A DNA stretch of 37,337 nt, from positions 1 through 37,337 of the forward strand of contig CAXIUT010000218.1 of NCBI GenBank assembly GCA_964035545.1. Reading direction: 5' to 3'. A program made the translations under genes and the position numbers. The stretch's first letter is position 1; each line of letters opens with the position of its first letter. The stretch is from Bugula neritina. Lineage: Eukaryota > Bryozoa > Gymnolaemata > Cheilostomatida > Bugulidae. Shown one piece after another: positions 1-37,337 of the stretch. Below the pieces are notes generated by a model, which was not told the DNA's origin, did not search any database, and saw only the letters and a list, made by a program, of their open reading frames with translations.

Positions 1-87
1 CCCAACCCCAACCCCAACCCCAACCCCAACCCCAACCCCAACCCCAACCCCAACCCCAACCCCAACCCCAACCCCAACCCCAACCCC
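1..87. repeat. Left terminal telomere, C4A2 repeats
   Basis: CCC followed by 14 perfect AACCCC units (87 bp) opens the window. This is the C-strand of a G4T2 telomere, the repeat type of oligohymenophorean ciliates. Read on the other strand the array joins unique sequence as TCA|GGGG. The first gene on this side ends only 78 bp inward, so the subtelomere is very short. Confidence 0.98.
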
Positions 88-5909: not shown

Positions 5910-6584
5910 TCACTTTAGCTCTGAGACTACAGTGCCTTTAGCATATTTTATAACTGTATCATGACCATGTTGTAAAACAAATTGACTCATGTTGTTCCCT
6001 TTCAAATCATAACATTTGGAAAATAAGTTACTATTCACCTTAAGAAGAGCAAAACAATATATGCAAATACATACTTGAGGCAAATTCCATCCTAATAAAT
6101 TCAGTATAATTAGAACAAACCATATTATCAAAAAGATATATATTGTCCACCAAAAAACAGTCTGATTTGTACTTGATATTATCCTTTAATCGACTCTTGA
6201 TTAAAATCTCCATTGTTCTCCTCCATCTTATGAATACTAAACCCACCATCTGAGTCCGACAAGCAACCTACCAACGATATTTTTAGTAACCCAAAAATCA
6301 ACTGCAGCAGCTACAATCATAAATGCGAGCACATTAAACGTGCATGTGATGGTAGGCAGCATAAGATAAACGAAAACAACTCCTATTTTAACTACAATAT
6401 GAAGAAGAGCGCTAATGGGATTACTAGCCATAGCGCACATTGATGGCAAAACTGAATCTCCCTAAGGTTTAAAACTTATTCTTTAAACTTCTGTTTCCTT
6501 ATTTGTGTCATTTTGTTCATCCTTAAGTTCTATCTCATCTTTCTGATCTATCTTGTCATAGTAATGAGGTTTTTCTTATTGCAT
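5910..6584 (-). CDS. TVP23/FAM18 Golgi membrane protein, copy 1
   Basis: A complete intronless 224-aa member of the TVP23 family (four-pass Golgi/endosome proteins linked to vesicle traffic). The hallmark is visible: VDFWVTKNIVGRLLVGLRWW followed by a segment matching the family WNEVDEDG...WVFESR block. There TAG/TAA fall exactly on the conserved acidic positions (WVEYSEDGGEQWRFESR), supporting UAR = Glu. A charged N-terminal leader (MQEEKPHYYDKIDQKDEIEL) precedes the first membrane segment. The start at 6584 lies 69 bp from the interstitial telomere array. A second TVP23 copy lies directly on the other side of that array. Confidence 0.95.
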
Positions 6585-6653
6585 TGATTATTGCTTTATA
6601 ATTTTTATTTAATCATATAAAATGTTAAATAGTTGATTGAGAATGATATGATG

Positions 6654-6734
6654 GGGGTTGGGGTTGGGGTTGGGGTTGGGGTTGGGGTTGGGGTTGGGGT
6701 TGGGGTTGGGGTTGGGGTTGGGGTTGGGGTTGGG
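6654..6734. repeat. Interstitial telomere array 1
   Basis: (GGGGTT)13-GGG, 81 bp, with no mismatch; one extra G at 6653 precedes it (GAT|GGGGGTT). It ends in the phase of the real chromosome end, TTGGG, and is followed at once by A and the C-terminal coding part of TVP23 copy 2. There is no C4A2 block, so this is not a head-to-head telomere fusion. Confidence 0.97.
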
Positions 6735-7272
6735 AGTTTTATTTTTGAACTTTGCTACATTTATAGTAAGAGTATGTGTTGAAGATTAGTAGTACTGCAC
6801 AGAATACACAGATTGTAATATGAGTCAGATTAATCTTCAAAACATTTATAACTGATAGTACTACCCAAATCAAACAAAAAAGAATTAAAGTCCACCAAAA
6901 TGCCTTATCACTAGCTCCAGAATTCTCTTTTTAATCCACTTTACACTCAAATTTCCAATGTTCTTCTCCTTCTTCGTTAAAATCAATCCACCATCTGAGT
7001 CCAACCAATAACCTTCCTGACACATTCTTGACAAACCAGAAATCCATAGCAGCTAAAATGACAACTATCACTAATACATCAAAGCTTCCAGTGATGAAAG
7101 GTAAGACTAAGTAAAGGAAAACTATTCCTATTTTAAGCAAGACATGTATTGCTGCTACTCCAGGACTAGAAGAATGGGATATAAAAGAAGGCATAGCACT
7201 ACTTTGGTTTACAGATGATCTCTAATTATCCTTAAGGATAAGGTTTTAGCCTTTTTTTTCTCTTTCGTTCAT
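6735..7272 (-). CDS. TVP23/FAM18 copy 2, C-terminus cut by telomere array
   Basis: The frame starts at ATG 7272 (MNEREKKGENLILKDNERSS) and contains the TVP23 core AAMDFWFVKNVSGRLLVGLR and the WKFE block, here with normal GAG for Glu. The last native residues are ...YKCSKVQKEN at the junction, about 25 residues short of copy 1. The frame then reads through the array as Gln-Pro repeats and meets TGA only at 6613-6615, giving a hypothetical 219-aa product. The stop of the ubiquitin-like-domain gene lies 30 bp upstream of this start. Either the native C-terminus was lost at the junction or the join is an assembly artefact. Confidence 0.9.
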
Positions 7273-7302
7273 TAACAATTTATTTTAAATTATACAAAGG
7301 AA

Positions 7303-9255
7303 TCACTTGGATTTAGGATAGAACTTACTGTGTTCGAAAGAAGCCATCATTTTAACATCTTTTCCACCTTCTTCTATCTGCTTAAGTAGTTCTGCTTCGC
7401 TATGAGCCTCTTCTTCACTCATTTATCTCTTCCTATCCATAAGTTCTTCATATTCTCTGTATACTCTTTTCAAATCTTTTTCGATGATTCCATAAAAAAG
7501 CATAGAAAGTCCACTTGCATATTTATCAAGAATTTTGATAGTATTGACTTTAAGATGTTAGAATACAACTTCTGAATAAGCAGATAGTTACCTTTATTTT
7601 AAGTGAACTTGATCATTTATTCGACTGATTGAGCATATGACAGTTTCATCTCATCTAGAACTTATATTTAAATATTAGTTCCTTCAGAAGAATCCAAAAA
7701 TAAAGCAATTATTTTTTATATATGATTTAGATTAATATTCTTTATTCTCTTGATACATTGTTCCTTATTTTTAATTTCAATATCAGGAACAAATAAACTT
7801 GTTAATTCACTTGAATATCTGTTTATTAGATTTTCTCTTGATCCTGCAACGGTAACAGCTTGTAAAAGAGCTTCCTTAAACTGATTACGTTTAGTTGTTA
7901 TGAATGAGAAGTTTTTCTGAGTGAAGATGCCAATAATCTAACTACCACTGATAACTTGAAAGATATTACGATAAATTGGATCCATCTATCCTTATTCAAC
8001 CATATCACCTAAAGACATAGATAGTAATTCTCCCATACCACCACTTTGTTGAACACTGTTGAATAAACCCATTAAGTTAATACCTCCTCCACTATTTTGT
8101 TATCCTTATTGTCCTGGTTGATTGTTAGGAACTGGAATAACAATTGAGTTTAACTGTTGACTAAGATTTGCTGAATTTAATTAATTTTGACTTGAAGGTT
8201 GTGGGGGATTTGAAACTTTTTAAGGTTATTATTTTTTTTAGATATTAGATTTCGGTACATTATTTTGTGTTTAAAGAGGATTTGTGGGAATATTTTTTGT
8301 CTATGATTCAGGTTTTGATACTGGATTTGATTCTGATTGAGATGATGTAAATTGGGAAGGTTGTTGAGGTTGAGTTGGATTTGGCTGCATATTTGCTCCA
8401 GTAAAAATATTTGAAAAACTAAACATGGCGTTGGGAGCCATCATCCCTCCAGGTTGGAGAAATTGATTTGCCAAATTTTGTAAATTAGGAATGTTCATTT
8501 GTGGAGGTTGCTGTTGTTGTTGAGATTGGGATTCAGACTGACTTTGTTGTTGTTGAGGCTGAGGCGGGAAAAATTGGCCTACCAAATTTTGTAAATTTGG
8601 AATATTCATTTGTGGAGGTTGTTGTGGTTGTGGTTGAGATTGAGATTCAGACTGACTTTGTTGTTGTTGAGGCTGAGGCGGGAAAAATTGGCCTACCAAA
8701 TTTTGTAAATTAGGGATATTCATTTGTGGAGGTTGTTGTGGTTGAGATTGGGATTCAGACTGACTTTGTTGTTGAGGTTGAGGTTGGAAAAATTGGTTTA
8801 CCAAATTTTGTAAATTAGGGATATTCATTTGTGGAGGTTGCTGTGGTTGTTGTGGTTGCTGTGGTTGCTGTGGCTGTTGTGGTTGTTGTGGCTGTTGTGA
8901 TTGTTGTGGTTGCTGTTGAGGTTGTTGGGGCTACTGTTGAGGCTGAGAAGGTTGTAATTTAGCGATTAGATGAATAGTGAGTCCAGATTATTTAACTATT
9001 TTAGCCTAAAATTACCATATTGCCCAATAGGCATATTGTCTAATAGTTGTTTTCCTGAATAGACAAGTCTTTGTTTCTAAATGGGTACTTTGATTTTCTA
9101 TTCAATTTTTATTTTAAGATCTCCAACAATCATCTGCATTGCTTCAATAGTACCTCAGGGTTAGTTTAAATGTCAAAAACTTCATTGCTCAATAGTTTAA
9201 CTTTGATATAGAAGTTGGATTCTTAAATAACTGGCTGGTTAAGATCTTCTGCCAT
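7303..9255 (-). CDS. Ubiquitin-like-domain protein with P/Q/S-rich repeats
   Basis: ATG 9255 to TGA 7303 with three 20-nt introns (9134-9153, 8996-9015, 7572-7591) gives 630 aa. Residues about 17-87 form a ubiquitin-like domain: VKLLSNEVFDIETNPE, then KIEEKIKVPIEKQRLVYSGK, then VKESGLTIHLIAKL, which line up with ubiquitin only after the introns are removed. A Gln/Pro stretch leads into four 35-38-aa repeats (MNIPNLQNLV...QFF...PQQQ...SQSESQSQ; ATG codons near 8828, 8723, 8609, 8498). The C-terminal 280 residues are helical (ENLINRYSSELTSLF, DLKRVYREYEELMDRKREM). The layout resembles BAG6/ubiquilin chaperones, but no UBA or BAG domain is certain, so only the N-terminal domain is firm. Confidence 0.8.
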
Positions 9256-9444
9256 TATGATTATGTATTTAATATCTTTTTAATCCTTTATTAGGTAAGC
9301 TACATGTGGATGAATAATATGAAATATTTGTAAAATTAATTAAGATCGTTATTAGTCTTATTGAATATAATATTAATTAATTGAATATGAATTCTTTTTA
9401 TTTTTTAAGAGTTTATTAAAGTTTCATTATTTCTAATAATTTTC

Positions 9445-10962
9445 ATGGGACTGTTAGGTAAGACATTGAAGGGAAGAAGCGCTAGACCAGGAGGTCTACC
9501 TCCTAAGAAAAACATTAAAATCCGACAAATAGCTAAAACCCAGGAAGAGTTCGATCAGCTTAAAAAACTTGCCAAGATGAAAAAAGATATTCTTCGATCT
9601 AAAATTTAAAGTTAGCACAAAATTGTTAATTTTAACAAGAAGAAATTACTTACTTATTGGAGAAAGATCATGAGAATAGCTAAAACAGAGTAGCTTAGAA
9701 ATTAAATTGATATTTACTCACAAAACAATCAAAGATAACTTGACTCCAAAGAGGCTTTTATACAGATGCTTGATAAAAACCTTGATTAATCAAACAATCA
9801 ATATCAGATAGCCATAAGAAATCATCTCATTCATATTGATACTCTTCTTTCTGTTCAAAATTCAAGAGTTCAAGGTTTAATGGAATAGTTCAGAAGAGAT
9901 GTAAATATACTTGAGCAGGAGTATCTTACTTAAAGACAGGAAATGGAACAAACTCATCATGATCATCTTAAAGAACTCAATGATATGATTGATACAGTTA
10001 AAGAATAAGATCGCAGAAAAGCTGAAGAAATAAGAACTGAGGAACAAGCTTTTCGTGAAGAAATCAAAAATAAAAATCTTGAAGAACTTCAACATATGAA
10101 ATTTAATCTTGAGGCTAAACAAACCAAGCATTATACAGAACTTTAACAAATGCATCAAAAATATTCATCTGATACTGGTAAAAAAACATAAGAGCATAGC
10201 AAAAATTTTGAAGACAATAAAAATATGACTATTAAGATCAATTAACTTGATAGAAATATCATTAGAAAAAGATCAAAAATAGATCTTCTAAAACTTAAAA
10301 TTTTACAACATAAAAAATAAAGTGGAGCTCGAAATAATGCTCTCAGAAAAGAAAAAGATAATATTTCGAAAAATTATCAAGAACTTAAAGAAAAAATGAA
10401 TAGATTCAGAGAAGAATAAGATCGTAGACTTAAATAACTAACCAACAATTCAAGAAATGCTGTTGAAAAACTTAAAGAGTATCTTTAAATGGGTGATAAA
10501 ATTCTAAAAACAGCTTAATTATGCAGAAGACTCTAAACTTAAAAAGAAAAGGTACTTCCTTTCTATGAATCAACAGTTGATGAAAGTTAAATTTCTTAAT
10601 AGTTGAAAAATCAATTCCAAGAACTATCTGCATAGGAGTATGAAGAATTCAAATATTTGAACAATTTCTTTAAAAGACATAACAAAGTTCTCCTGGATCT
10701 ATTGGCCATTAAAAAGCAAAAAGAAACTCTTGGAAAGGATAACACAATGTTGAAATCACTATTGAAACAATATTTGGATGGAATTTCTCTTAATGATTAA
10801 GTCTTAAGAACAAACAACCCTCTTTTCATTGTGAATAATCGCATTCAAATCAGTCAAGAACCAGTAGAAGAAACTCAAGGTCCAACCATTGTCAATGCTA
10901 ACTTTGTTCATACCAACAATATCAATCAACTTGGCAGAATGGCTCCTCAACGCTTCCAGTGA
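9445..10962 (+). CDS. Nexin-dynein regulatory complex subunit 2 (DRC2/CCDC65)
   Basis: An intronless 505-aa coiled-coil protein. After a short basic N-terminus it is almost wholly helical. The diagnostic DRC2 features are the NKNLEELQHMKFNLEAK segment and, near residue 350, MGDKILKTAELCRRLETE followed by KEKVLPFYESTV, matching the conserved LCRKLETEREKVLPFY block. DRC2 pairs with DRC1 to form the base plate of the nexin-DRC on axonemal doublets. Length matches the family (about 480-510 aa). It is divergent from the ubiquitin-like-domain gene (189 bp between starts) and converges with the next gene (59 bp between stops). Confidence 0.88.
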
Positions 10963-11021
10963 TAACCCCATAAATTTATAAATTATAACTATCTTTATAT
11001 TTTAGTATAATACCATACAAA

Positions 11022-11765
11022 TCAAAATTAACATTTTCTTTTCTTTTCCTTTTTTAGTCTAGAACGGTAATACTCTTTCTATTAATTCAATTGTTTCACT
11101 TTTTTTTCATATTTATTTAAAACGCATTTGAGTTTTTAGATTATTTATTCATATCTATTATCTTATCTCAATTTAGACTGTTCTGATTATCTTTTAGTTA
11201 GCATAGTAGAATTTAATAAACTTTTCATAGCTTTCAGTCTATCTCCTGATAAATTCTATCTTTTATTATTATTGCTCTAACAGCTTTTACCACCTGTTAT
11301 CTCGTGTTTTGTTTCTAATCTATCAGAAATATTGATCTTTGAACTATAGTCATATTTTAATTTAGTAAAGTTTTTTCTTTTATCTTTTTTATCCCCTTGT
11401 TTGCCGAACTAACTCCAATTTCTTCTAACTTTTCTTCCTTTCATTTTTTAATCCTTCTTCACAGATTTACCTGATTTTCCTCTCCAATAATATCTAATAT
11501 TGACATGATTATCATGACCTTTGCTATTTTTATTTATACCTCCTTTACTACTTCTCCAATTCTTAGAACCAAAGGTAACATCTTCTATATTGTCTATTAA
11601 TGAACTTTTGTCTTTATTCTGTGATGGTCGAGAATCAAGACTGTGTCGTTTAGACAAAGTGTGAGGTTTTGTTTGAAAATATAGATGACTTGCTTTCAAA
11701 CTATTAAATTTGTGTTGAGGTTGAGGGAGAAGAAGTAAATGATATCGCTTCGAATGACTGCTCAT
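11022..11765 (-). CDS. Basic Ser/Lys-rich protein with C-terminal coiled coil
   Basis: A continuous 247-codon frame from ATG 11765 to TGA 11022. The N-terminal two thirds is basic and disordered (RSSKGGINKNSKGH, DEKMKGRKVRRNWSEF); the last 60 residues form a charged coiled coil (IIEKLKCVLNKYEKKVKQLN, then EEKEYYRSRLKKEKKR). I do not recognise the family. The start lies 70 bp from interstitial array 2, the same spacing as genes beside the true chromosome ends. Confidence 0.72.
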
Positions 11766-11835
11766 ACAATTATATCTATCGGTTATTATTTAAATTTTAA
11801 TATGACACTTTAAATAGATCTCATAATATTTTTTA

Positions 11836-11916
11836 GGGGTTGGGGTTGGGGTTGGGGTTGGGGTTGGGGTTGGGGTTGGGGTTGGGGTTGGGGTTGGGGT
11901 TGGGGTTGGGGTTGGG
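11836..11916. repeat. Interstitial telomere array 2
   Basis: (GGGGTT)13-GGG, 81 bp, perfect; left junction TAG|GGGTT. The right flank begins with A and continues in frame with the MORN-repeat gene, so the array sits where the 5' end of that gene should be. Across the junction the frame is Leu-Gly repeats. Confidence 0.97.
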
Positions 11917-14050
11917 ATCTACTTCATCTCAAGATAGCTAGATTTATGGAAAATGTCTCAATGGACCTGGAAAAGTAACCTTTAAAAATGGCAATACCTA
12001 TGATGGTAACTTTTTCAATGGATTACTTAATGGCTAGGGCACATTTACTTGGGCAAATGGAATAGTTTATTCTGGCTAGTTTACATAAAACAGGATTACT
12101 GGAAAAGGACACTATAAATGGCCTGATGGTAGTAATTATGAAGGATAAGTTAAAGATGGTCTCAGGCATGGTTTTGGAAAATATACTGTTGATGAGGCAA
12201 CCTACTAAGGAGATTGGGTTGAGGGTAAAAAAGAAGGAAAAGGTAAAATTGTATTCAAAAGTGGAAGTATTTTCTAAGGATATTTTAAAAGTGACAATAA
12301 GCAAGGATATGGAAAAATGTATTACTATCCTTCAGGAAATTTCTTTTAAGGATAATGGAAAAATGATTCTAAAAATGGAATGGGAACTATGAATTGGACA
12401 GACATCAGATAAAAATATGTTGGAAATTGGAAAAATAATCAACAAGAAGGTTGGGGCATTCATATCTGGTTGTAATCTAAAGGCTAAGGAAAATATATGA
12501 GAAATAGATATGAAGGAAATTGGAAATGTGGAGTAAGATAAGGATATGGAGTCTTTTATTATGCCAATGGTTCTAAGTATGAAGGTTATTGGAAAGATAA
12601 TATGAAAGAAGGATATTCTTTCTATACTGATTAAAATGGAAAAAACTCATTAATCCTCTTTTGTAAAGACAGAATGATAAAAGGAAATAAGCCAGATATT
12701 ATTGAAGGATAGGCTGTCAAAAAAATACCAAGTAAAAAATAGGTTTAACCTAATCTTTATTCTCTTTCTATGAACATCAATCATTTTTATGAACCAGAAA
12801 CTCCTAATCTGGAATATATTTTCAATTATTTGTTGAGAAATAATACCCAACTTAAAACCTGGTATAGAAATGCAGCTTCTTTTTATGATCAGCAATCTGA
12901 GTTTAGTTTTTGTTTGAATTTGGAAGGAGTATGGAAGATGATTAGAAGTTTAAAAATACTTGGAGATTTTAGTCTAGCTCAGTTTAATCGAGGAGTCCCT
13001 CAAAGTAATCCAGATATTGAACATATTTTAAAAATCACTCCTCAAGTACCTGAAGATAAAACAAATTATGAAAATATTTATTACCAAAGTCTTGGAAAAT
13101 AAATATAATCAGACCTTTAATCACTGAAAAATCGTAAAGTCCTAAAAGCCTAGATGCCTTTCAAAGAATACTTGGTTAATAACAGATAAAATAATATCCT
13201 TTTCAGGTAATTTGTTCATCTTTTAGTTTGGATGGCACATCATCTCGAGCCAACTCTTTAAAAACCTCAAAAATCAATTGAAAAGCTAATCACTAAAATA
13301 GCTCCTTTCTTAGATTCTCTCAATAAAGTTATCAAAGTATCAGGAAGTTAAAATATGAGTTAAAATAAATCATCTATAAGTAAAACTTAAAAAAATCTGT
13401 CTCCCTTTTATAGAAGTTTAAATAATGATATTTTTAAGACTTTGATAAAAGGAAAAGATGCTTCGCTACTAAACCTTAAAGATTAAGTAATTAGAGTTCG
13501 TTAATTATTGGGTTATGGCTTAATAAACAACTGTATAGGTTAACACGAATGGAGTTTACTTGAAAAAATTCTTTAAAAGTACTTTGATAATTAAATTTTA
13601 AATCGATAGAAAAATAAAAATTTGGAAAAATCAGTAATTTCAAATAAAATATTAAATGTAATGAACTATGAATTGATATAGTATGAGTTTGTAGAAATTA
13701 TTTATATCCTCTTTATCAAAAAGCTTCCCAGCACAAAAGAAACAGAGTAAAACAAGAAAAAATATCAAGAAGTAGTCCAAAATCTTTACACAGCTAAAAC
13801 TTAGCATGAAAAGCAAACATCTGCTAAAAAAGACTTTGTCAATGAAGTCAGATATATATCATCAGAAAGATCAAAGATTAAAGTAGCAATGAAATAAAAA
13901 AGAAAAGTTTTATAGGCTAAAAAAGCTGAATCCTAGGCTCTTGCTAAAGAGAAAGAAAGGTAGCATTGGTAATAGTTGATGATGGGAAAAGAAGACTTTG
14001 ATATAAAGGACCAGGAATTATAAGAGGATTAAAGCTAATTTTAAATATGA
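11917..14050 (+). CDS. Radial spoke head 10 homologue B-like MORN protein, N-terminus missing
   Basis: The frame is open from the array edge to TGA 14048-14050 (about 710 aa), without introns. Some ten MORN repeats fill the first 245 residues (YDGNFFNGLLNGEGTFTWAN, YEGDWVEGKKEGKGKI, YEGNWKCGVREGYGVFYYAN); several TAG/TAA codons fall on the Glu of YxGEW or GEG. After them comes a segment with NLEYIFNYLLRNNTQLKTWY and a basic coiled-coil C-terminus. MORN repeats followed by this block and a coiled coil is the RSPH10B layout, a protein of the radial spoke head. No start codon is visible: the first native codons (GSTSSEDSEIYG, counting the junction codon) abut the telomere repeat, so the 5' end is lost. 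The stop lies 14 bp from the convergent PP2C stop. Confidence 0.78.
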
Positions 14051-14064
14051 TTGATTGGTCTTTA

Positions 14065-14988
14065 TCATTTCTTAAATTCAACTAATATTGCAGTCATATT
14101 GTCTCTTCCATAAGGGTCAGTCTTTTCTGTTCCTGGATTCAAATTCTTGTCAAAAAAACTCTTTAAAACCTAACTACTATTTGATGTTTTAAGATTTTCA
14201 ACAAATAATTTTGTTAATTTAGCAGTATCGTTTTCATATTTTTACCAAATACCATCACAACCGATTATTAAAATCTCTTCTTTACCATTTCTAGGTGCTT
14301 CTATAATATCAGGCATGCAGGTAATTGGTTGTTGATTAAAAGGAATTCCTTCGATCTTTTTATGACTGAAATCACCAATTGATCTTGTGAGATTGAGTCC
14401 ATTAACTCTTCCTTGTATGATTGGTACACCAGCTTTTTCAATTCTCTTTTTTTCAATTGGATTTTCAGGTTTATGATCGAAAGAAAGAGGAACACATTTA
14501 TTATCCTGCCATAAAGCTGCTCTAGAGTCTCCAGCATTAGCACAGATAAATTTATCTTTTGTGACAAGAACAACAACAGCAGTAGCTCCAGATTGCAGTT
14601 ATCCTTCCTATGCTTTTCTATTTAATTATTCGTCTTTATATTTCAATAGTTCAGCTATTCCTGGTTTTAGTTTCATCATGAGTTCTACATGAATAAATGT
14701 TTCGGTAAGTGCTTGTCCATAGTTGCCTTCTTGAAGAGTTTTTCTTTTCAAAAAAACATCTAAAAAGTGAGCTGCGATATATTTAGAAGTTTAAGCTCCT
14801 CCATGACCATCAAAGACTCCAAATAGGCTGAAATCCTCGTAACCAGGTATTTATTTGTAAGCGATATAGGCATCTTCCATATTTTTACGCCATCCTTGCA
14901 TTTAGCAAGTTGCATATTTAATTAGCTTGTTCTCCTACCAACTTTGCTTTTTGGCTGTTATAGGTTTCTCCAAAAAATTGTTTCCCAT
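14065..14988 (-). CDS. PP2C-type Ser/Thr phosphatase
   Basis: An intronless 307-aa PPM-family phosphatase, the size of a bare catalytic domain. The metal-binding and core motifs are all present: QGWRKNMEDAYIAY, SLFGVFDGHGGAETSKYIAA, ANAGDSRAALW, SIGDFSHKK, CDGIWEKYEND and GRDNMTAIL. TAA encodes the Glu of GGAE and of DGIWE, both conserved acidic positions. It starts with MGN, so N-myristoylation is possible. It dephosphorylates Ser/Thr with Mg/Mn; no substrate can be inferred. The start lies 74 bp left of interstitial array 3. Confidence 0.97.
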
Positions 14989-15062
14989 TTATAATTTCTT
15001 GCTAACACTACAATATCAAATATCAACAAATATATTCTAAATAATAATATTATTTTTAAATA

Positions 15063-15149
15063 GGGGTTGGGGTTGGGGTTGGGGTTGGGGTTGGGGTTGG
15101 GGTTGGGGTTGGGGTTGGGGTTGGGGTTGGGGTTGGGGTTGGGGTTGGG
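15063..15149. repeat. Interstitial telomere array 3
   Basis: (GGGGTT)14-GGG, 87 bp, perfect, exactly the length of the left terminal telomere; left junction TAG|GGGTT. The right flank begins AAAGG and is the interior of the calpain-like gene, whose minus-strand frame runs into the array as Thr-Pro repeats. Confidence 0.97.
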
Positions 15150-16928
15150 AAAGGTGGTAGAGAGTTAAATCCTTTTTTGAGTTAATGTGATAAACATTAT
15201 AAATTTTTTATTTCTGGAAAGTTAGCTTCTACATGAACAGTTTGCCTGTGATTGATTGTATTTCTTATGTAGAGAAGCATAATATCTCCAATCCATTTAA
15301 CGATATGTGAGATATCATTATTTTATATTTAACCAATTTATCTAAGTTCTCTATAAGCTATGTCTTTCAGCAACAGTTCAAAATGTTCTTTTACTGAATT
15401 AATTACTAATTTACATTGATTTGATTGGGAATATTAAAACTTGATATCTTCATTAGCACTTACTATGAGGACATCTTTGTTACCTGCTGTTGCTTAGAGA
15501 ATCAATTTTGTTGAACCTGCTACTTTGTATTATTTTCTTTTTAATTTTAATAGATAGTTTCCTGGCATTAGAGTTTGATGAGAACCATTTAATAAATCTA
15601 AATTATAGTGATAATACTTGTTTATTCTACACCGAAACATCCTTAGTCATTATGTTATCCAGAAACTATAGTTTTTCTATCAGCATCTAAAAGAAGGTAA
15701 GTTATTGGATAAAAAGTATTAAATTTATTCATTTGATGTAAAAACATACCGACATTTCCTGATTTTTTAAGTTGAAACTTCAAATAAATTTCTTGTTTTT
15801 AATCACTTCCAAAACGGATCATTTATTAACTGACTATTGGAGAGTGAGATGAATATGAAACAATAAAAAATGATCTTATTTGTTCTTAAAATTATTGTTA
15901 AGTTAGTAAGAAGTTACCAGGAGCTATTGCTTATCCAGTTCCTTTAATAATAAGTTGTTCTAGGCTATAAGATAATTCTTTAAGAGTTCCTCTAAATTTG
16001 AATTAACCACAAGGATTTCTCAAATAAAAATATACTTTTCCTTAAAAATAAAAGATTGATATTAAATAAAAATGATACCCAGTTAAACCTAAAGAGTTAT
16101 TAGGGTTTTATCGAGAATATACAGGACAACCAAAATTTGGATTATTCATGTATTTATCAATAAGATGAGTTTTTACTAATTGTCTGTTTTCTTATGTTGA
16201 TTTATCAAGGTTAAATACTTTGATAGGGTACATGAGAAAGGTTTTAAAGACTTAAAAAGGATGTGTTTTTTATATTTTAGAAGTGTAGAATTGTTTAAGT
16301 TTGAACCAAGCTTTTTCCAAGAGACATGGCCACATATCAGTGTCTTTGATTGGTTTAGAAAAGACAGGTCCCTGTTATTTTATCGTTAAAATGTAGTCAT
16401 CAATGTAAATAACTTATCTTTTGCCTTCGCAGACAAAATAAATCGCAGCTATTCCATAGCTATTGGATTATGTAAGGATAATTCTTTCAATTAGTTGCGG
16501 ATATCGAGATAGAAAGCACAAAAAGACACCAAAATATTGCATAATTTAATCTATATTTATTGATTCATACCTCCAATAACGATGTTATTAGGGTGACAGT
16601 TTTAACGATTTACTATTTTGTACATTCGATTTCTTAAATTGGCATCTCTCTTTAGAAAAGCTTAGGGTCGATCGAATTTACAGTGTAATTATTTTTTTAT
16701 GCCTTTTAGCTTTAAAGGTTATATACTCAATGAATAATCTCGATATCTTCTTTAAGATTTCTTTAATCTATTTTCACAATCTTCTAAATCAGATCTGATT
16801 GAAGCTACTGGAGATCTGATACTATCTAAATGTTGAAATTTTCCCTCTTTTTAATCTTCTCCAAAACGGTATTAATAATGATTATATTTTTTTTAATCTT
16901 AGTCAGGTCCACAAAGATTCTGTCCCAT
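15150..16928 (-). CDS. Calpain-like protein without catalytic Cys, C-terminus cut by array
   Basis: ATG 16928 (MGQNLCGPDEDEKK, a possible myristoylation site), with 20-nt introns at 16551-16570 and 15598-15617; at least 579 aa. The CysPc fold is clear: RYPQLIERIILTE, GIAAIYFVCEG, VIYIDDYI, PVFSKPIKDTDMWPCLLEKA (the WPxLLEKAW block), then GLTGYHFYLIS and FYLRNPCG, which keep the His and Asn positions. The catalytic Cys block (GDCWFLxALA) reads GDEIMQYFGVFLCFL, with no Cys in place, so a pseudoprotease is likely. A beta-rich domain follows (LLNGSHQTLMPGNYLLKLKR). The frame is still open, ending ...FNSLPPF, where it meets the telomere array. Confidence 0.85.
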
Positions 16929-16968
16929 TTATATTTTATATAATAATCATAAAGGTTGATAACTCTAA

Positions 16969-17464
16969 TCATGACAGTTTCCGGGAGTCTAAAAACTAGT
17001 TCTCGATAATCCTACCATTGCGCTAACCAGAAGTGCCAAATTTATCAATCTGAAAGCTTAATTTTATAAAATCTACATGTTTTTAGCCATTTTGTTTAGG
17101 ATTACCATTTATAAAGACGTACTTAATATACTAACCTTAATAAGAAAAATAAGGTAGTTAGAAATAATTAAAATCCAAATGGAGAAAAAGTCATGACAAA
17201 ACCAACTGATATCACATGATCTCCAAATGATAGTAAAAATTAATTTTCCCATTTCTCTTTATAAATCTAAATATACCTGAAATGATCTTTCCATCATATC
17301 TATTTTAGGCAAATTACTTTATTTGTCCTATAGTTTTAAACTGTTTATATCTTTCTTCATCAGAAAAGCCACTAAGTTATATACAAAATAGAGTAGAAGT
17401 AAATCTATTCCAAATAAAATTCTTAGAACTCGTAAGTTGATGCTTCCATCTTGCATTTCGTCAT
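16969..17464 (-). CDS. Small gene with jacalin-like features, exon model uncertain
   Basis: Coding character is evident but the frame changes. My best model starts at 17464 (MTKCKMEASTYEF), has introns at 17405-17429 (25 nt), 17257-17276 (20 nt) and 17136-17202 (67 nt), and ends at TGA 16969-16971: 127 aa. The second half, VISVGEYIKYVFINGN then VDFIKLSFQIDKFGTSGERN, resembles the last strands of a jacalin-type beta-prism lectin. The 67-nt intron is out of line with the others. A single unspliced frame also stays open from ATG 17498 to about 16949 but looks less protein-like. The product is therefore a weak suggestion; only the presence of a minus-strand gene is reasonably supported. Confidence 0.42.
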
Positions 17465-17573
17465 AAATTGGAGAGCAAAGGTTGATTTCGTAGGCCATTT
17501 TTATTCTAAATCTTTCAAATATTATAGTTCAAATATTCATAGTTTATAAAGAAAAGAATTTTGACATGAATAA

Positions 17574-19939
17574 TCACATATTTTTCTAGATTTACTTTCT
17601 GATTTCAATCGGTTGAGATTTCTTAATAACAGCCATTGCTTGTTCAATGTTGTATGCTTCAGAGGCTTTCAAAAATTTCGTACAAAGTTCGTTGCTCCAT
17701 TCTTATGATAAGTAAGGAAGAGTGTTCTTTTTACCACTTTCAACATATCTGTTATAATAGAATAGAGCCAGTTAAATAGGTTCAGGCTTTTTAAGATACT
17801 TTTCGATGAAGTTTAACAAATATTTACATCCTGAAAACAAAACAGTCACTTTATTTACTTTAAAAAGTTCAAGAGCAATATCTTCCCATATTCTTCCATT
17901 AACAGTATAAAAAGGTCTCAAAGTTTGAGGATTAAATTCAACATCACTTGTATCAGGATTCAAGCCATAACACCAATTTATCTAAGCCTTAGGTAATTTG
18001 TCAACTTTAATATTGTAGTCTAAAAAGATATCAGAAGCAGATTTTTGTGCATCTAAGAGAGTTGTAATATGATACAATTCTTCAGGAGGCAATTATTGAG
18101 AGTAGTTTGGGAATTTCGAAATGATTTTTTAAAGTTGTTGAGGTTCAGGTTCACCATCAACAGGAATAAAAGAAGTACAAATTTCAAGTTCTTTAAACTT
18201 TTATGAAACCTTTGTTGCATCAACAAAAAATCCTCTTTGATAGAATCCTTTGCACCAAGCCTTAAATTCCTTCTTTTCATGAGTTGTATATTTTTTAAAT
18301 CTAGACAACATGACCATAAGTGTTTTAGTTCTAACGAAGTGTCCTTTTAATCCTTTATCAAGAGGATATCCTAAAGCTTTAGTCATTTTGATCATAGGTT
18401 CTATATTAGGGAAATGAAATCTGAAGGTATCTCTATCTGTAGGTTGATTTAAATATCCACTATTGACACAATACCAAATGGCAACATCAGTTGGAATTTG
18501 AGTGGTAACAAACTGAGCCAATCCACACATACTTGCCATTGTATAGCTGCTTTTTAATCGATAAATCAAATGTTCTGTTGCATTGGCTTGAATAGCATTT
18601 AAATATTGAATTTATCCTTCAGAAATCAAATACCAAATAACTGCATAATACATGTTCAAGTTACCAAGAATCTTTCCACCTGCAATCAATTTAGCTATAG
18701 TAAAGTTACCAACAGTCACATGAGATTTATGTGTACCTAAAGGAATAGCTCCTAGCAATCTATTTTGCGTAAATGGGTTTTTCAATAATTTATCTGAATA
18801 TTTTACACCTGTGAAAGTTGATAATGAGGCCTTGAATTTAGCTCTTAGTTAAGGATAATTTAAAATTCTTAAAGGGCATGCAGCAATATCATCTACAATA
18901 TATTTTTAAACATTTAAAAGGAAAGGCTAGCATTAATCAACTAGAATTTGAGGAATATCTTCATCTAAAATAATAGGGCATTAGATCAAATTTTTAGATA
19001 AATCGTTTATTTATACTTATTTATCTATTTTTCCTTCTTGAGCAGTTTGGGCAGTAGCCATTTTATTTGATTTGATTTGACCAATGCTATACTTTCCTCT
19101 TAAATCACCACATAAATTAATTAAATGGCTAATCTTCTTTTAGAGATCAGTTGTTAAATCATCTGAAAAATATTTTTTACTCATAACTCCTGCTATCTAG
19201 ATAGCTCCATCAAAGTTATTATTTTATAAATGTTTTCTCATTTACAATCCATAATCAGTTTCTTTATTCATATTTTTTGATAACTCCTTCACTAATCTAG
19301 TTTTCATTGTGACTATTTGATTCTTCAAAGGAATATTACCTTCCTTACCCATATTGAGAGCAATGATTAGCCCCTAAATTAGATCATATTTTGATTCAAA
19401 ATTATCCAAAGTTATATCTTCAAGTGAATCCAATATCTTGTAATCTTCTGTAGTATAAGCAACAATAGCCTTTAGATCTTAATCTCTTTTCTTGGTAAAG
19501 ACTTGACTTTCACAATATCTAGAAAAAGGGCAAGTAACAGACATATTGACTTATCCATACCCTGTGCTAATGATATAACAAATAGATTTAGTAATCTTGA
19601 AACCAGTTTCCTTAAAAGTATTTTAGATAGTTTTATCACAGGCTTGAACATTAGTATCTCCAACTTAGCCATCAGTAACCAAAATAATATGAGAAAATTT
19701 CTTATGAACCACAGTACTGGCTACAAATTGAGGTTGTGTTCCCCAGTAGCTTTTCTTCCTTTAATCCATTATTCAAGTTCTTTTTTATTTGATTCTTTAA
19801 TGCTAGAGTTCCAAAGATAGTAATGAGATATATCTTTAGCATATTTGGTAAGAATGGTGTCAACTGTATCCCAATAGTTAGCAGATCCTCCTACTGATCC
19901 AGAATTATCAACAAATAAGGCGTAAGAATCTTTCTCCAT
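17574..19939 (-). CDS. von Willebrand factor A domain protein, one apparent frameshift
   Basis: ATG 19939 to TGA 17574, about 788 aa once a one-base shift is allowed. The N-terminus has a vWA MIDAS: SYALFVDNSGSVGG (DxSxS), later HIILVTDGEVGDTN with the conserved Asp. The large C-terminal half is helical and soluble (MASMCGLAQFVTTQIPTDVA, ALGYPLDKGLKGHFVRTKTL) and unrecognised. The frame changes at the C4 run 19741-19744: upstream reads ...EEWIKGRKATG, downstream ...TQPQFVASTVVHKK, and a fifth C would join them. No GT...AG intron of usual length fits there, so a sequencing error, a real lesion or frameshifting are the options. The start is 55 bp from array 4. Confidence 0.78.
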
Positions 19940-19994
19940 TAATTTATATTATTAGATATGTATTCCTATTCTTTTATATTATTATTAATCTGAG

Positions 19995-20069
19995 GGGGTT
20001 GGGGTTGGGGTTGGGGTTGGGGTTGGGGTTGGGGTTGGGGTTGGGGTTGGGGTTGGGGTTGGGGTTGGG
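19995..20069. repeat. Interstitial telomere array 4
   Basis: (GGGGTT)12-GGG, 75 bp, perfect, preceded by one extra G (GAG|GGGGTT). The right flank begins AGCTAAAG. Same orientation and terminal phase as the other three arrays and the right chromosome end. Confidence 0.97.
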
Positions 20070-20171
20070 AGCTAAAGAAAAAATTGATAGCAGAATTATT
20101 TTATTTGATTGTCTCTGATATTAATAGATATTTAAAGTTATTAATTTAAGTTGAGATGATGAAAGTTTCAT
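20070..20171 (-). CDS. Possible N-terminal fragment of a gene cut by array 4
   Basis: From ATG 20171 a minus-strand frame gives 34 residues (MKLSSSQLKLITLNIYEYQR, then a hydrophobic stretch NKIILLSIFSLA) before entering the array as Pro-Asn repeats. It would be divergent from IFT56 with 51 bp between the starts, a normal spacing here. It is too short to identify and could be plain intergenic sequence. Confidence 0.25.
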
Positions 20172-20222: not shown

Positions 20223-21975
20223 ATGTATCGTCCAGGAACATCCATTTCAAAGGCAAAAGTCAAGAGTTCAACGAACTAAGATAACGCCTATAACAAAATA
20301 CAAGCTGAGAAGATGCCTACTCTCCAAGATTACATCAAAAAAAGAGATTGGATTGGAGCAGTTACTATTTTATAAAGTGAAGGAAATGTCAACATCCAAG
20401 TTGAAAACAGTCTCTGGCTAGCCTACTGCTACTTTCACATGGGCTAATACAGGTATTTATAGTCTCAATTAGAAAAGCTATCAATAAATATGATGAACTT
20501 CTGAGAAAAACATAAGACAAAGATTTTCATATATTCAAAGCTTGCTGCTACTATGCTCTTTGTCTTTATGATGATGCCAGAAGAGAAGCTTTAAAGGGGT
20601 CTTAAACTCCTTTACAGACTAGATTGCTGTTTCATTTAGCTCATAAAAAAAATGACGAAAAGAACTTGATGCATTATCATCAAAAGTTAGATTAAAGTGC
20701 AGAAGTATTTTTAAAAATATTCAGGATCAACTAACTTTGGCAGCTATCCATTATCTGCGAGGTCATTATGAAGAAGCAACATAAATATATAAAAAGTTAT
20801 TGCTCTAAAGTAGAAAATATGAAGCTATTAATGTTTATATTGCTCTTTGCTATTACAAAATGGAATATTTTGATGTTTCTCTTGAAATACTTTCAGGATA
20901 CTAAACTTTTGATCCTGAAAGCATCTTTGCCTCAAACTTAAAAGCATGCAATAATTATCAGGTTTATTCTGGTAAAAATGCAGAAGAAGCTTTAAGACCG
21001 ATTCAACAAAAATTCAAAGGAGGAGATCTCTTCAAAGAAAATGATCTGCTTAGGCATAACTTAGTTGTTTTCAGAAATGGATAAAATGCTATGCAATTTC
21101 TTCCTCCTTTATTAGAACTCTTTCCTGAAACAAGACTTAATATGGTTATTTATAATCTGAAAAATGACTCTGTCTAAGAGGCTTTCAATCTAGTTAAAGA
21201 CCTTTAACCTACTAATCCAAGAGAATATATCATTAAAGCAGTTTCATATTTAATGTATGGACATAAGAAAGATTCAAAAGAGCATTTAAAAACCTCTCAG
21301 CAACTCTTTCAATTAGTTGGAGCATCTGCTACAGAATGCGATACTATCCCTGGTCGTCAATGCATGGCTAGTTGTTTCTTTTTGTTAAAACAGTTTGATG
21401 ATGTGCTTGTTTATCTCAACAGTATCAAGAGTTACTTCCAGACTGATGATGATTTCCACTGGAATTATGCTTTAGCTAACGCCTCTACTGGAGACTATAA
21501 AGAAGCTTAAGGCAGTTTTTTGGCTATTAGAAATGAAAAGTATAAAAGCTAGTAAACTTACATTAAGTGGCTTATTAGAACCTACATAATGAATGGAAAA
21601 CCTAAGAATGCCTGGGATGTTTATATTTCTACTGAAACATCTACAGATTCATACAACCTTCTTCAATTAATTGGAAATGATAGCTACAAAATGGGACATT
21701 TCTACTATGCAGTCAAAGCTTTTGAAGCTCTTTAAAAAATTGATTCAGAAAATGATTATGAAGATGCTTTAAGAGGAAGTGTTCTTGGAGTTTTCCAGAT
21801 GGTAGTAGCTGGTAAAGAATCAGTTGAACATTTAATCGAAGCAGCAGCTATTTTGAAATCAGCTGAAGGATCACCACAAGTACTATTTTGATAAATATAG
21901 AATGATCGTGTGATAAAGGCAATTAAGAAATGGGGTAAAGAAAATAATTTAGATTTCGATGAAATTGGTCTCTGA
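20223..21975 (+). CDS. IFT56: Intraflagellar transport protein 56 (TTC26)
   Basis: 563 aa after removing introns 20453-20472 (20 nt), 20705-20724 (20 nt) and 21880-21900 (21 nt). The TPR superhelix of IFT56/TTC26/DYF-13 is recognisable throughout: [98 protein letters not shown] and [12 protein letters not shown] at the C-terminus. It is an IFT-B subunit needed for ciliary transport of a subset of axonemal cargo. Length fits the family (about 550 aa). Several TAA codons fall on conserved Glu (DESAEDQL, DLEPTNP). The 21-nt intron contains an in-frame TGA if retained. Confidence 0.97.
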
Positions 21976-26135: not shown

Positions 26136-27632
26136 TCAAAGACTGCTTCCAAGAGCGATCAAAAATTCTTCATAGCTGATTTATCCGTCTTTATCAAGAT
26201 CTGCTTCTTTCATAATATCTGTCGCAACTCTCATAGGTAATTCAAGTCCCATCTTTTCTATCTGTTGATATAGCTCTTGCCTGCTGATTTTTCCACTTTT
26301 ATCTTGATCGAAATATTTGAATATATAGTCTAAATAATCTTTTTTGAGGCAATAGTCTTCATGTAGCATTGAAGCAACAAATTAATTATAATTTATTTTA
26401 CCATTTTTATCCATATCCATGCTTTTGAGAACATAATGCAGTTCATTGTATGTAGGCTTCACTCCCTGCTTCTTCAATGTTCTCTCTATTTCATCCACTG
26501 AAAGGTATCCATCATTGTTTGAATCGACTTGACTGAAAAGTAAACTTAAGTTTTAAATTTCTTTTGATGGAAGTTGTGAAGCAATAAAAGCTAATACAAC
26601 AGCTTTTAATCTTGAAAAAGTTGAAAATTTCTTCATTTTTGAATAATCTAATTCTATTGATAAACCTTTAAACTGTTCTTCTTGTTGAACCCAAGGATGT
26701 CGAAGGATTTAATCAAGGGTAAGTCTCTTTTCAACTGGTACCAAAATTTTAGCAATTAACTCTCTCAAAAGAGGACTAAGGTTTTGAACTTAAGGGTCTA
26801 AATAGTGAATGAAATACTTTAGACATATGACTAGTGTTTAACTTTATGCAAGATATCTTGGTCATTTTATCCAGGAAAAGGAGCAGTTGCAGTTGTTATG
26901 ACGTGTAAGAGTACTCCAAGTGCCCATATGTCACACCTTTCATCATAATCTTTTTTGAGAATTTAAGGTGAAACATAATATGAAGTTCCAACTATTTTAT
27001 TGCTGCCAGATTATTCCATTTCACTTTTCATATCATTCTTCCAATGAAAAGACAATCCAAAATCAATCATCGTTATTTAGTTATCTTCAGCTCTTTTGAA
27101 TAAGAAGTTCTAAGCTTTTAGATCTCGATGACATATTTTTTGAAGGTGTAAATATTTAACTGCCTTAACCATCTGAATAAAAATATATCGAGCCTTATCT
27201 TCAGAAAAACATCCATATTAATCAATTCTATCAAATAGCTATCCTCCTTCACACAAACTAAATCAAAATAGTTATACTCAGCAACAAGGTAGAGGTAGTT
27301 TTAATCCTCGTAAGTTTCATAGAGTCTGATCACATAAGGATGATCCAGTAAACTCAAGATATTGATTTAGTTTTTAAGTACTTAAGGGTTTTTAATGAAT
27401 TTCTTATTGATTACTTTGACACATCTCTCAGAGTAGGGAGGTTATTTAAGAGTTGCTTGATAAACTGTGCCATAACCACCACGACCAATTGGCTAAATAA
27501 TTGAAGAGATACCTTATGATGAAACTTATAGATGGTTTTAATGTTCTCTTTTCTGGATTGTATGAAATAATCCTTTTTGATCGCTGTTTTTGTTGAGATG
27601 GGGGTATAAGGGGACAAACACTCTACTTACAT
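26136..27632 (-). CDS. Calcium-dependent protein kinase (CDPK), copy A
   Basis: 476 aa from ATG 27632 with introns 27493-27512 (20 nt), 27258-27277 (20 nt) and 26817-26842 (26 nt, less certain). Kinase domain: GRGGYGTVY (Gly loop), CVKVINKK (Lys), LCEGGELFDRID, CHRDLKAENFLF, MIDFGLS and GTSYYVSPEILKKDYDERCD. Four EF hands follow: DSNNDGYLSVDE, DMDKNGKINYNE, DQDKSGKISRQE and DLDKDGEISYEE. This is the standard CDPK layout, so activation by calcium is expected. TAG/TAA supply the Glu of GGELF, KAEN and PGEND, giving three independent tests of the code. A paralogue lies directly upstream on the same strand. Confidence 0.96.
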
Positions 27633-27799
27633 TGCCAATATAATTTGATTATCAATCTTCCAATAATAGCTTAATAAATTATTTTGTAATAATTGATCAG
27701 AAATACTGATTTTAAACCAACTACTAAGTATTTAAATATTTTAAAATATCTAAATCTTACAATAGTAACTATTTATATGATAAAGATAGACACATCATA

Positions 27800-29311
<1,512 letters not shown>

Positions 29312-37244: not shown

Positions 37245-37337
37245 GGGGTTGGGGTTGGGGTTGGGGTTGGGGTTGGGGTTGGGGTTGGGGTTGGGGTTGG
37301 GGTTGGGGTTGGGGTTGGGGTTGGGGTTGGGGTTGGG
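37245..37337. repeat. Right terminal telomere, G4T2 repeats
   Basis: (GGGGTT)15-GGG, 93 bp, perfect, reaching the last base of the window; junction TAG|GGGTT. Together with the left C4A2 block this marks a chromosome capped at both ends. Confidence 0.98.

What the first reader, a model, noticed from the sequence alone, without database searches (positions are those of the whole stretch)
6654..20069. Four perfect interstitial telomere arrays, all in one orientation and in chromosome-end phase
Seen: arrays of 81, 81, 87 and 75 bp, against 87 and 93 bp at the true ends; all end exactly ...TTGGG, all point the same way, none has a mismatch, none is paired with C4A2. Known: ciliate somatic telomeres are short and phase-defined, while interstitial telomeric repeats in other genomes are usually degenerate. 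Inference: each array was once a real capped end. Either the somatic genome holds chained chromosome pieces (telomere addition at a break, then joining to another broken end), or telomeric 3' ends primed on other templates during DNA amplification or were mis-joined in assembly. If real, this is an unusual chromosome architecture.
Basis: partly seen in the sequence, partly recalled or inferred. Interest (0 to 1): 0.9.

Follow-up and report, generated by a model that had tools for sequence, protein, structure and literature searches.

The report
Overlaid alternative chromosome ends, ciliate contaminant
The telomere runs inside this contig are best read as genuine alternative ends of small chromosomes of a ciliate living on a sequenced sea-mat (bryozoan), which the genome assembler laid on top of longer copies of the same region; they are probably not chromosomes chained together.

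Summary
In detail: four perfect (GGGGTT)n arrays of 81, 81, 87 and 75 bp, all on the + strand, all ending TTGGG like the two true ends. The window is a ciliate contig inside the Bugula neritina reference tzBugNeri2.1. Small contigs of that assembly carry hundreds of such arrays.

Where tested, the two sides belong together. Array 1 lies between two co-oriented TVP23 paralogues; the right copy lacks 26 residues plus stop (81 bp; array 81 bp) by 16 of 18 aligned sequences. At array 2 an RSPH10B-like gene lacks 23 codons (69 bp; array 81 bp) by its closest homologue. In contig C11 both sides are versions of one minisatellite locus. So an array replaces about its own length of a continuous sequence.

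In one fully listed sample 39 of 46 contigs share one polarity, although contig strand is arbitrary. Best explanation: alternative telomere addition sites, as in Paramecium bursaria and Blepharisma, with each capped HiFi read laid down whole before the longer read continues. Chained chromosomes and amplification are not supported. Raw reads, not available here, would settle it.

The parts
1..87 (-). Left terminal telomere, C4A2 read on +
6654..6734 (+). Internal array 1 (81 bp); alternative telomere site between two TVP23 paralogues
11836..11916 (+). Internal array 2 (81 bp); stands where the first 23 codons of the RSPH10B-like gene should be
15063..15149 (+). Internal array 3 (87 bp); between a PP2C gene (left, - strand) and a calpain-like gene (right, - strand); loss not measured
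19995..20069 (+). Internal array 4 (75 bp); between two divergent genes
37245..37337 (+). Right terminal telomere (93 bp)
5913..6653 (-). TVP23-family gene, copy 1, left of array 1 (open frame, table 6; the frame runs on through the array to 6824)
   Evidence: PF05832 E 6.3e-33
6736..7302 (-). TVP23-family gene, copy 2, right of array 1; C-terminus cut at the array
   Evidence: PF05832 E 4.9e-40
11918..14047 (+). RSPH10B/FAP266-like MORN-repeat gene; begins at residue 24 of homologue P0001
14068..15015 (-). PP2C phosphatase gene left of array 3
   Evidence: PF00481 E 2.2e-55
15505..16773 (-). Calpain-like gene right of array 3 (a further open frame reaches the array)
   Evidence: PF00648 E 3.6e-15
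17577..19772 (-). Open frame left of array 4 without a Pfam match; its apparent start lies just left of the array in another frame (19328-20167)
20223..21888 (+). IFT56-like gene right of array 4; the ATG 153 bp from the array and the introns are read by eye
   Evidence: 8bd7 E 1e-144 for 20656-21888

Best explanation
The window is somatic (macronuclear) DNA of a ciliate that was present on the sequenced bryozoan colony. Its small chromosomes end at variable positions: telomerase caps the same region at different, mostly intergenic sites in different copies (alternative telomere addition sites). Shorter, capped molecules and longer molecules that run on through the same site were sequenced as HiFi reads. 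The assembler tolerated the non-matching telomere tail of the shorter read, wrote that read out to its end, and then went on with the longer read from the same offset. Each internal array is therefore a real chromosome end, but probably no single molecule holds the array followed by the next segment; the sequence right of it is the natural continuation minus about one array length. Shown here: arrays, ciliate code and telomere, origin of the assembly, related flanks at array 1 and in C11, loss of about one array length at arrays 1 and 2, one polarity in the gapless contigs read. Inferred: the macronuclear origin, the read-level picture and the assembler's layout rule.
For: Array 1 separates two TVP23 paralogues in the same orientation (PF05832 in both; 44% identity over 155 residues, E 2e-41). 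In 16 of 18 aligned sequences (17 of the 120 listed relatives, and copy 1) exactly 26 residues follow the point where copy 2 stops; with the stop codon that is 81 bp, the length of the array. At array 2 the gene resumes at residue 24 of a 71% identical homologue: 69 bp missing, array 81 bp; five named ciliate homologues have 28-36 residues before that point. Four N-terminal and four C-terminal pieces were not found in the 1 kb left of arrays 2 and 1 (best E 0.07). An aldehyde dehydrogenase gene in L017 starts late, after 178 bp of array: 35 of 41 listed solved chains aligned from its first residue put it at residue 23-45 (66-132 bp missing), 6 at 51-68. In C11, about three minisatellite units and their flank lead into the array, and 77 units of the same satellite with the same flank, uncapped, follow it. 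Nucleotide similarity between the two sides of one junction: 2 of 28 junctions, against 2 of 756 mixed pairs (one is the same stretch, one is 33 bp; hits of 97% or more were dropped from the mixed pairs) (Fisher p 0.001 without those two, 0.007 with them). The last 90 bp before an array are non-coding (score 0.013 against background 0.066, n = 31 of 33). Polarity follows contig strand: 39 of 46 contigs, p 1.8e-6; 35 of 41 without the contigs known to be mixed, p 4.9e-6. Some arrays are parted by only 1, 2 or 96 bp (L019, L023, C53), as clustered telomere sites would be. The process is known: PMC7702705 (C4A2, 8-16 kb minichromosomes, variable ends; passages) and PMC9942806 (46,705 potential sites; passages).
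Against: No read was seen. The polarity found is the opposite of what I recall of the miniasm/hifiasm layout rule, which keeps read starts and would give C4A2 arrays; the sign is unexplained. Seven of 46 sampled contigs show the other polarity, among them gapless C249. The reading-frame test across arrays gave 3 of 24 in the same frame, about chance. The coding score of the first 90 bp right of arrays (0.045 +/- 0.012) is only slightly under background. At protein level 1 of 27 junctions has similar sides and so do 3 of 702 mixed pairs, two of them within one contig. No uninterrupted copy of junctions 1, 2 and 4 was found elsewhere in the assembly.
Confidence: 0.86

Rival explanations
1. Ligation or sequencing chimeras: blunt telomere ends of one molecule were joined to broken ends of unrelated molecules during library preparation and then assembled.
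For: Arrays stop in the phase of contig ends, which a join after end repair would give.
Against: Flanks are not unrelated at array 1 and in C11. In the measured cases right-hand genes are cut by about one array length or less (arrays 1 and 2; L017 by 35 of 41 chains), whereas random breaks would cut anywhere. Pieces of 1, 2 and 96 bp between arrays would not survive the removal of short fragments described. Random joins would mix polarities within a contig; C207, C10, C11, C14 and C249, as far as read, do not, but seven larger contigs do.
Confidence: 0.06
2. Real chained chromosomes: in the living macronucleus a capped end was joined to a broken end, so molecules with internal arrays exist and are replicated.
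For: Perfect arrays with true-end phase; in Paramecium, ends left by DNA elimination are joined or capped (PMC7702705, passages).
Against: A physical insertion has no reason to follow the arbitrary strand of a contig (39 of 46) or to remove just its own length. In C11 the capped side and the continuing side are two versions of one locus, not neighbours.
Confidence: 0.04
3. Germline interstitial telomeric repeats or telomere-bearing transposons retained in the assembly.
For: Such elements exist in other ciliates (telomere-bearing elements of Oxytricha are mentioned in PMC9942806, passage).
Against: No element shared between junctions (2 of 756 mixed pairs below E 1e-5, one trivial); array length and phase match ends; no transposon domain among the ten window frames scanned with Pfam.
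Confidence: 0.02

Closest known systems
Alternative telomere addition sites of Paramecium bursaria minichromosomes (PMC7702705; passages seen)
   Same: C4A2/T2G4 telomeres, full-length minichromosomes mostly 8-16 kb, highly variable ends for similar gene content; the authors tiled overlapping minichromosomes into artificial long contigs
   Different: There the tiling was deliberate; here capped reads seem to have been laid down inside contigs by a standard pipeline. About 30% of sites are in coding regions there; here the 90 bp before arrays score as non-coding on average. Species here not identified.
ATASs of Blepharisma stoltei (PMC9942806; passages seen)
   Same: Telomere-bearing HiFi reads map throughout contigs, typically a minority of reads at each site
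   Different: Other telomere repeat (CCCTAACA) and genetic code; assembled with Flye; sites were found by mapping reads
Alternative fragmentation isoforms of Oxytricha trifallax (PMC6937825; passages seen)
   Same: Internal telomere addition sites give nested chromosome isoforms that complicate assembly
   Different: Nanochromosomes of about 3.2 kb on average; isoforms reported as separate molecules
Interstitial telomeric sequences of animal and plant chromosomes (recalled, no call)
   Same: Telomere repeats inside a contig
   Different: Those are physical and usually degenerate; these are perfect, end in true-end phase and follow contig strand

Membership tests
Alternative telomere addition sites (ciliate macronucleus) | Organism is a ciliate with G4T2 telomeres and reassigned stops | tested here: met
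   26 frames of 250 or more codons under table 6 (and table 29), 0 under tables 1, 4 and 10; telomeres at both ends; named ciliates among the best homologues: Tetrahymena, Pseudocohnilembus, Paramecium
Alternative telomere addition sites (ciliate macronucleus) | Array at the site has the length and end phase of true ends | tested here: met
   Internal mean 86.8 bp (n 34, sd 28.9), contig starts mean 90.0 bp (n 38, sd 13.1); 33 of 34 and 36 of 38 end TTGGG. Most internal ones were found with a pattern that asks for that phase; the window's four were not
Alternative telomere addition sites (ciliate macronucleus) | Other molecules continue through the same site | tested here: inconclusive
   Indirect: related flanks at array 1 and in C11, short losses at arrays 1, 2 and in L017; no read-level view
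Alternative telomere addition sites (ciliate macronucleus) | Only part of the reads at a site bear telomere | not testable with these tools
   Reads ERR12085103 not available
Tetrahymena Cbs-type programmed breakage | 15-bp Cbs (sequence recalled) next to the telomere sites | tested here: not met
   No exact Cbs and no 8-bp core in the window; variants not tested
Physical interstitial telomeric sequence | Array present in the chromosome independent of how the contig is written | tested here: not met
   Polarity follows contig strand, 39 of 46 contigs, p 1.8e-6; 7 of 41 contigs in another list are mixed

The most novel reading that the evidence does not exclude
The arrays are physical: this ciliate joins capped ends back to the adjoining broken end after trimming, so that its somatic chromosomes carry a telomere scar of fixed phase at former break sites, in one orientation along each molecule.
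Probability: 0.04. Interest if true: 0.9.

Novelty: new member of a known kind. Interest (0 to 1): 0.33.

Why it matters
It removes a tempting false claim (chained somatic chromosomes) and gives a simple signature for spotting the same overlay elsewhere: perfect terminal-phase arrays, one polarity per gapless contig, and loss of about one array length from the following gene. It also shows that a published bryozoan reference holds ciliate DNA: 286 of 295 held contigs, 15.6 Mb, are not the nine chromosomes, and at least the 38 of 40 array-bearing contigs sampled begin with a ciliate-type telomere. That matters for anyone who uses the unplaced scaffolds or their gene annotation.

Tried and rejected
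A search with 20 kb of the window did not even return the window itself, so it was not used as evidence; 1.2-1.6 kb queries did. The reading-frame continuity test was uninformative. A coding profile right of arrays did not separate continuous from random joins. A universal 18S motif recalled from memory gave no match in the assembly, so the species was not identified. The first, short ALDH query found nothing. Considered and dropped: amplification priming (no such step in the Methods seen), hairpin/palindrome collapse (no C4A2 partner at the window's arrays), Cbs breakage.
Full report
WHAT WAS CHECKED. Frames of 250 or more codons exist only when TAA and TAG are not stops: 26 under table 6 (and table 29), none under tables 1, 4 and 10. 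The DNA is that of a ciliate.

WHERE IT COMES FROM. The window is contig C207 of an assembly of 215,847,546 bases in 295 contigs. HiFi reads (2.82 million, 27.37 Gb) came from DNA sheared to 12-20 kb, assembled with hifiasm, purge_dups and YaHS; no amplification is named for that library. The word ciliate does not occur in its main text. The other 286 held contigs sum to 15.6 Mb. Of 40 small contigs whose start was fetched, all chosen from lists of array-bearing contigs, 38 begin with C4A2.

HOW COMMON, AND WHICH WAY ROUND. Arrays ending TTGGG and followed by another base occur 381 times forward and 77 times reverse (only the first places are listed). Reverse ones include contig starts and arrays next to 200-bp N gaps, as Hi-C scaffold joins leave (L016 and L027). 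In the listed part (C10 to C61), contig starts left out, 32 contigs are + only, 2 - only and 7 mixed; the mixed ones are all over 72 kb, two of them have N gaps next to the reverse array, and five were not read. A subset that could be listed completely, arrays followed by C, has 41 forward and 9 reverse in 39 and 7 contigs (two-sided p 1.8e-6 for contigs); without the five contigs of it known to be mixed it is 35 and 6 (p 4.9e-6). Contig strand is arbitrary, so a physical feature should not prefer one. The gapless contigs read in full or in large part (C207, C10, C11, C14, C249) have one polarity each; C249 is the mirror image of the others.

THE FLANKS BELONG TOGETHER. Array 1: left and right genes, both on the - strand, are TVP23-family (PF05832, E 6.3e-33 and 4.9e-40), 44% identical over 155 residues (E 2e-41). 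The right copy runs into the array. In 16 of 18 aligned sequences (17 of the 120 relatives listed, and the window's own copy 1) exactly 26 residues follow that point; one relative has 10 and one none. Twenty-six codons and a stop are 81 bp, and the array is 81 bp. Array 2: the MORN gene starts with STSSQDSQIYGKCLNG; the 71% identical homologue P0001 has 23 residues before STSSQDSEIYGKCLNG, and five named ciliate homologues have 28 to 36; four shorter database proteins start later and one mollusc protein has 77. That is at least 69 bp lost, against an array of 81 bp, if P0001 is the measure. Pieces of four homologues each were not found in the 1 kb left of the arrays (best E 0.07). So the array stands in place of about its own length rather than being inserted. 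L017: an aldehyde dehydrogenase gene begins after 178 bp of array; of 41 listed solved chains that align from its first residue, 35 put that residue at 23-45 and 6 at 51-68 (leaders and tags included), that is 66-132 or 150-201 bp missing. Array 4 and the junctions in L014, L031 and C53: the right-hand gene has an ATG close behind the array and looks whole, by reading only; IFT56 is confirmed for 20656-21888. Array 3 was not measured.

THE SAME LOCUS TWICE. In C11 the left side has about three units of a 29-bp minisatellite, then ATTAAATACTATTAAATTATCAGATATTG, then the array. The right side starts within the same minisatellite, about 77 units, followed by CTAAATACTATCAAATTATCAGATATTG without a telomere. 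A capped short version and an uncapped long version of one locus have been written one after the other. Across 28 junctions, 2 show nucleotide similarity between their own sides (array 1 and C11); among 756 mixed pairs, hits of 97% or more dropped, there are 2 below E 1e-5, one trivial (same stretch) and one of 33 bp. At protein level it is 1 of 27 against 3 of 702, two of the three within one contig.

MECHANISM. Telomerase caps the same region at different sites in different copies. The 90 bp before arrays are non-coding on average (score 0.013 +/- 0.008, n = 31, against a background of 0.066), so sites are mostly intergenic. A shorter capped read overlaps a longer one, its telomere tail does not match, and the layout keeps the tail and then continues with the longer read at the same offset. 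This gives one array per read end, one polarity per gapless contig, loss of one array length, true-end phase, and close clusters of arrays (parted by 1 bp in L019, TA in L023, 96 bp in C53). The layout step is inferred. From memory, miniasm-type layout keeps read starts and would give the opposite sign; this is not resolved. The reading-frame test (3 of 24, chance level) and the coding profile to the right of arrays neither help nor hurt.

WHAT IS KNOWN. Paramecium bursaria has variable telomere addition sites throughout its macronuclear genome and minichromosomes of 8-16 kb (PMC7702705; passages). Blepharisma has 46,705 potential sites, most of them seen in one read (PMC9942806; passages). 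Oxytricha has alternative fragmentation isoforms (PMC6937825; passages). A search for papers holding hifiasm, macronuclear and telomere together found none in the library; that does not show that the artefact is undescribed.

VERDICT. Observation confirmed; the arrays are real ends; their interstitial position is very probably an overlay made by assembly. Ordinary for ciliates, useful as a caution and as a marker of an overlooked ciliate in a reference genome.

Noticed in passing
Whole assembly G000 (Bugula neritina tzBugNeri2.1), contigs other than C1-C9: 286 held contigs, 15.6 Mb, are outside the nine chromosomes; 38 of 40 array-bearing ones sampled start with a ciliate-type telomere, so a bryozoan reference carries ciliate DNA. 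The genome note's main text does not use the word ciliate.
   Followed up: partly
L016 (C15 near 50330), L027 (C20 near 47559): Telomere ends face each other across 200-bp N gaps, as Hi-C scaffolding would leave. Hi-C came from another colony collected two years earlier, so the same or a similar ciliate may have been on both colonies.
   Followed up: no
L017 from 1525: A well conserved aldehyde dehydrogenase frame has one in-frame TGA near its start; a sequence error, an intron or a reassigned codon cannot be told apart here.
   Followed up: no
L045 5310-7542 (contig C11): Minisatellite of about 77 units of 29 bp, against about three units in the capped version of the locus.
   Followed up: partly
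window 8471-8942: Tandem 114-bp and 9/18/27-bp repeats that encode a Q/P-rich low-complexity protein region.
   Followed up: no
window 26284-29239: Two tandem stretches of about 1.3 kb, 67% identical, probably a gene duplication.
   Followed up: no
C53 12350-12555 and L023, L024: Arrays with shortened units inside or split by a few bases (2 bp in L023, 31 bp in C53), as if several capped ends close together had been written one after the other.
   Followed up: partly
   Followed up: no
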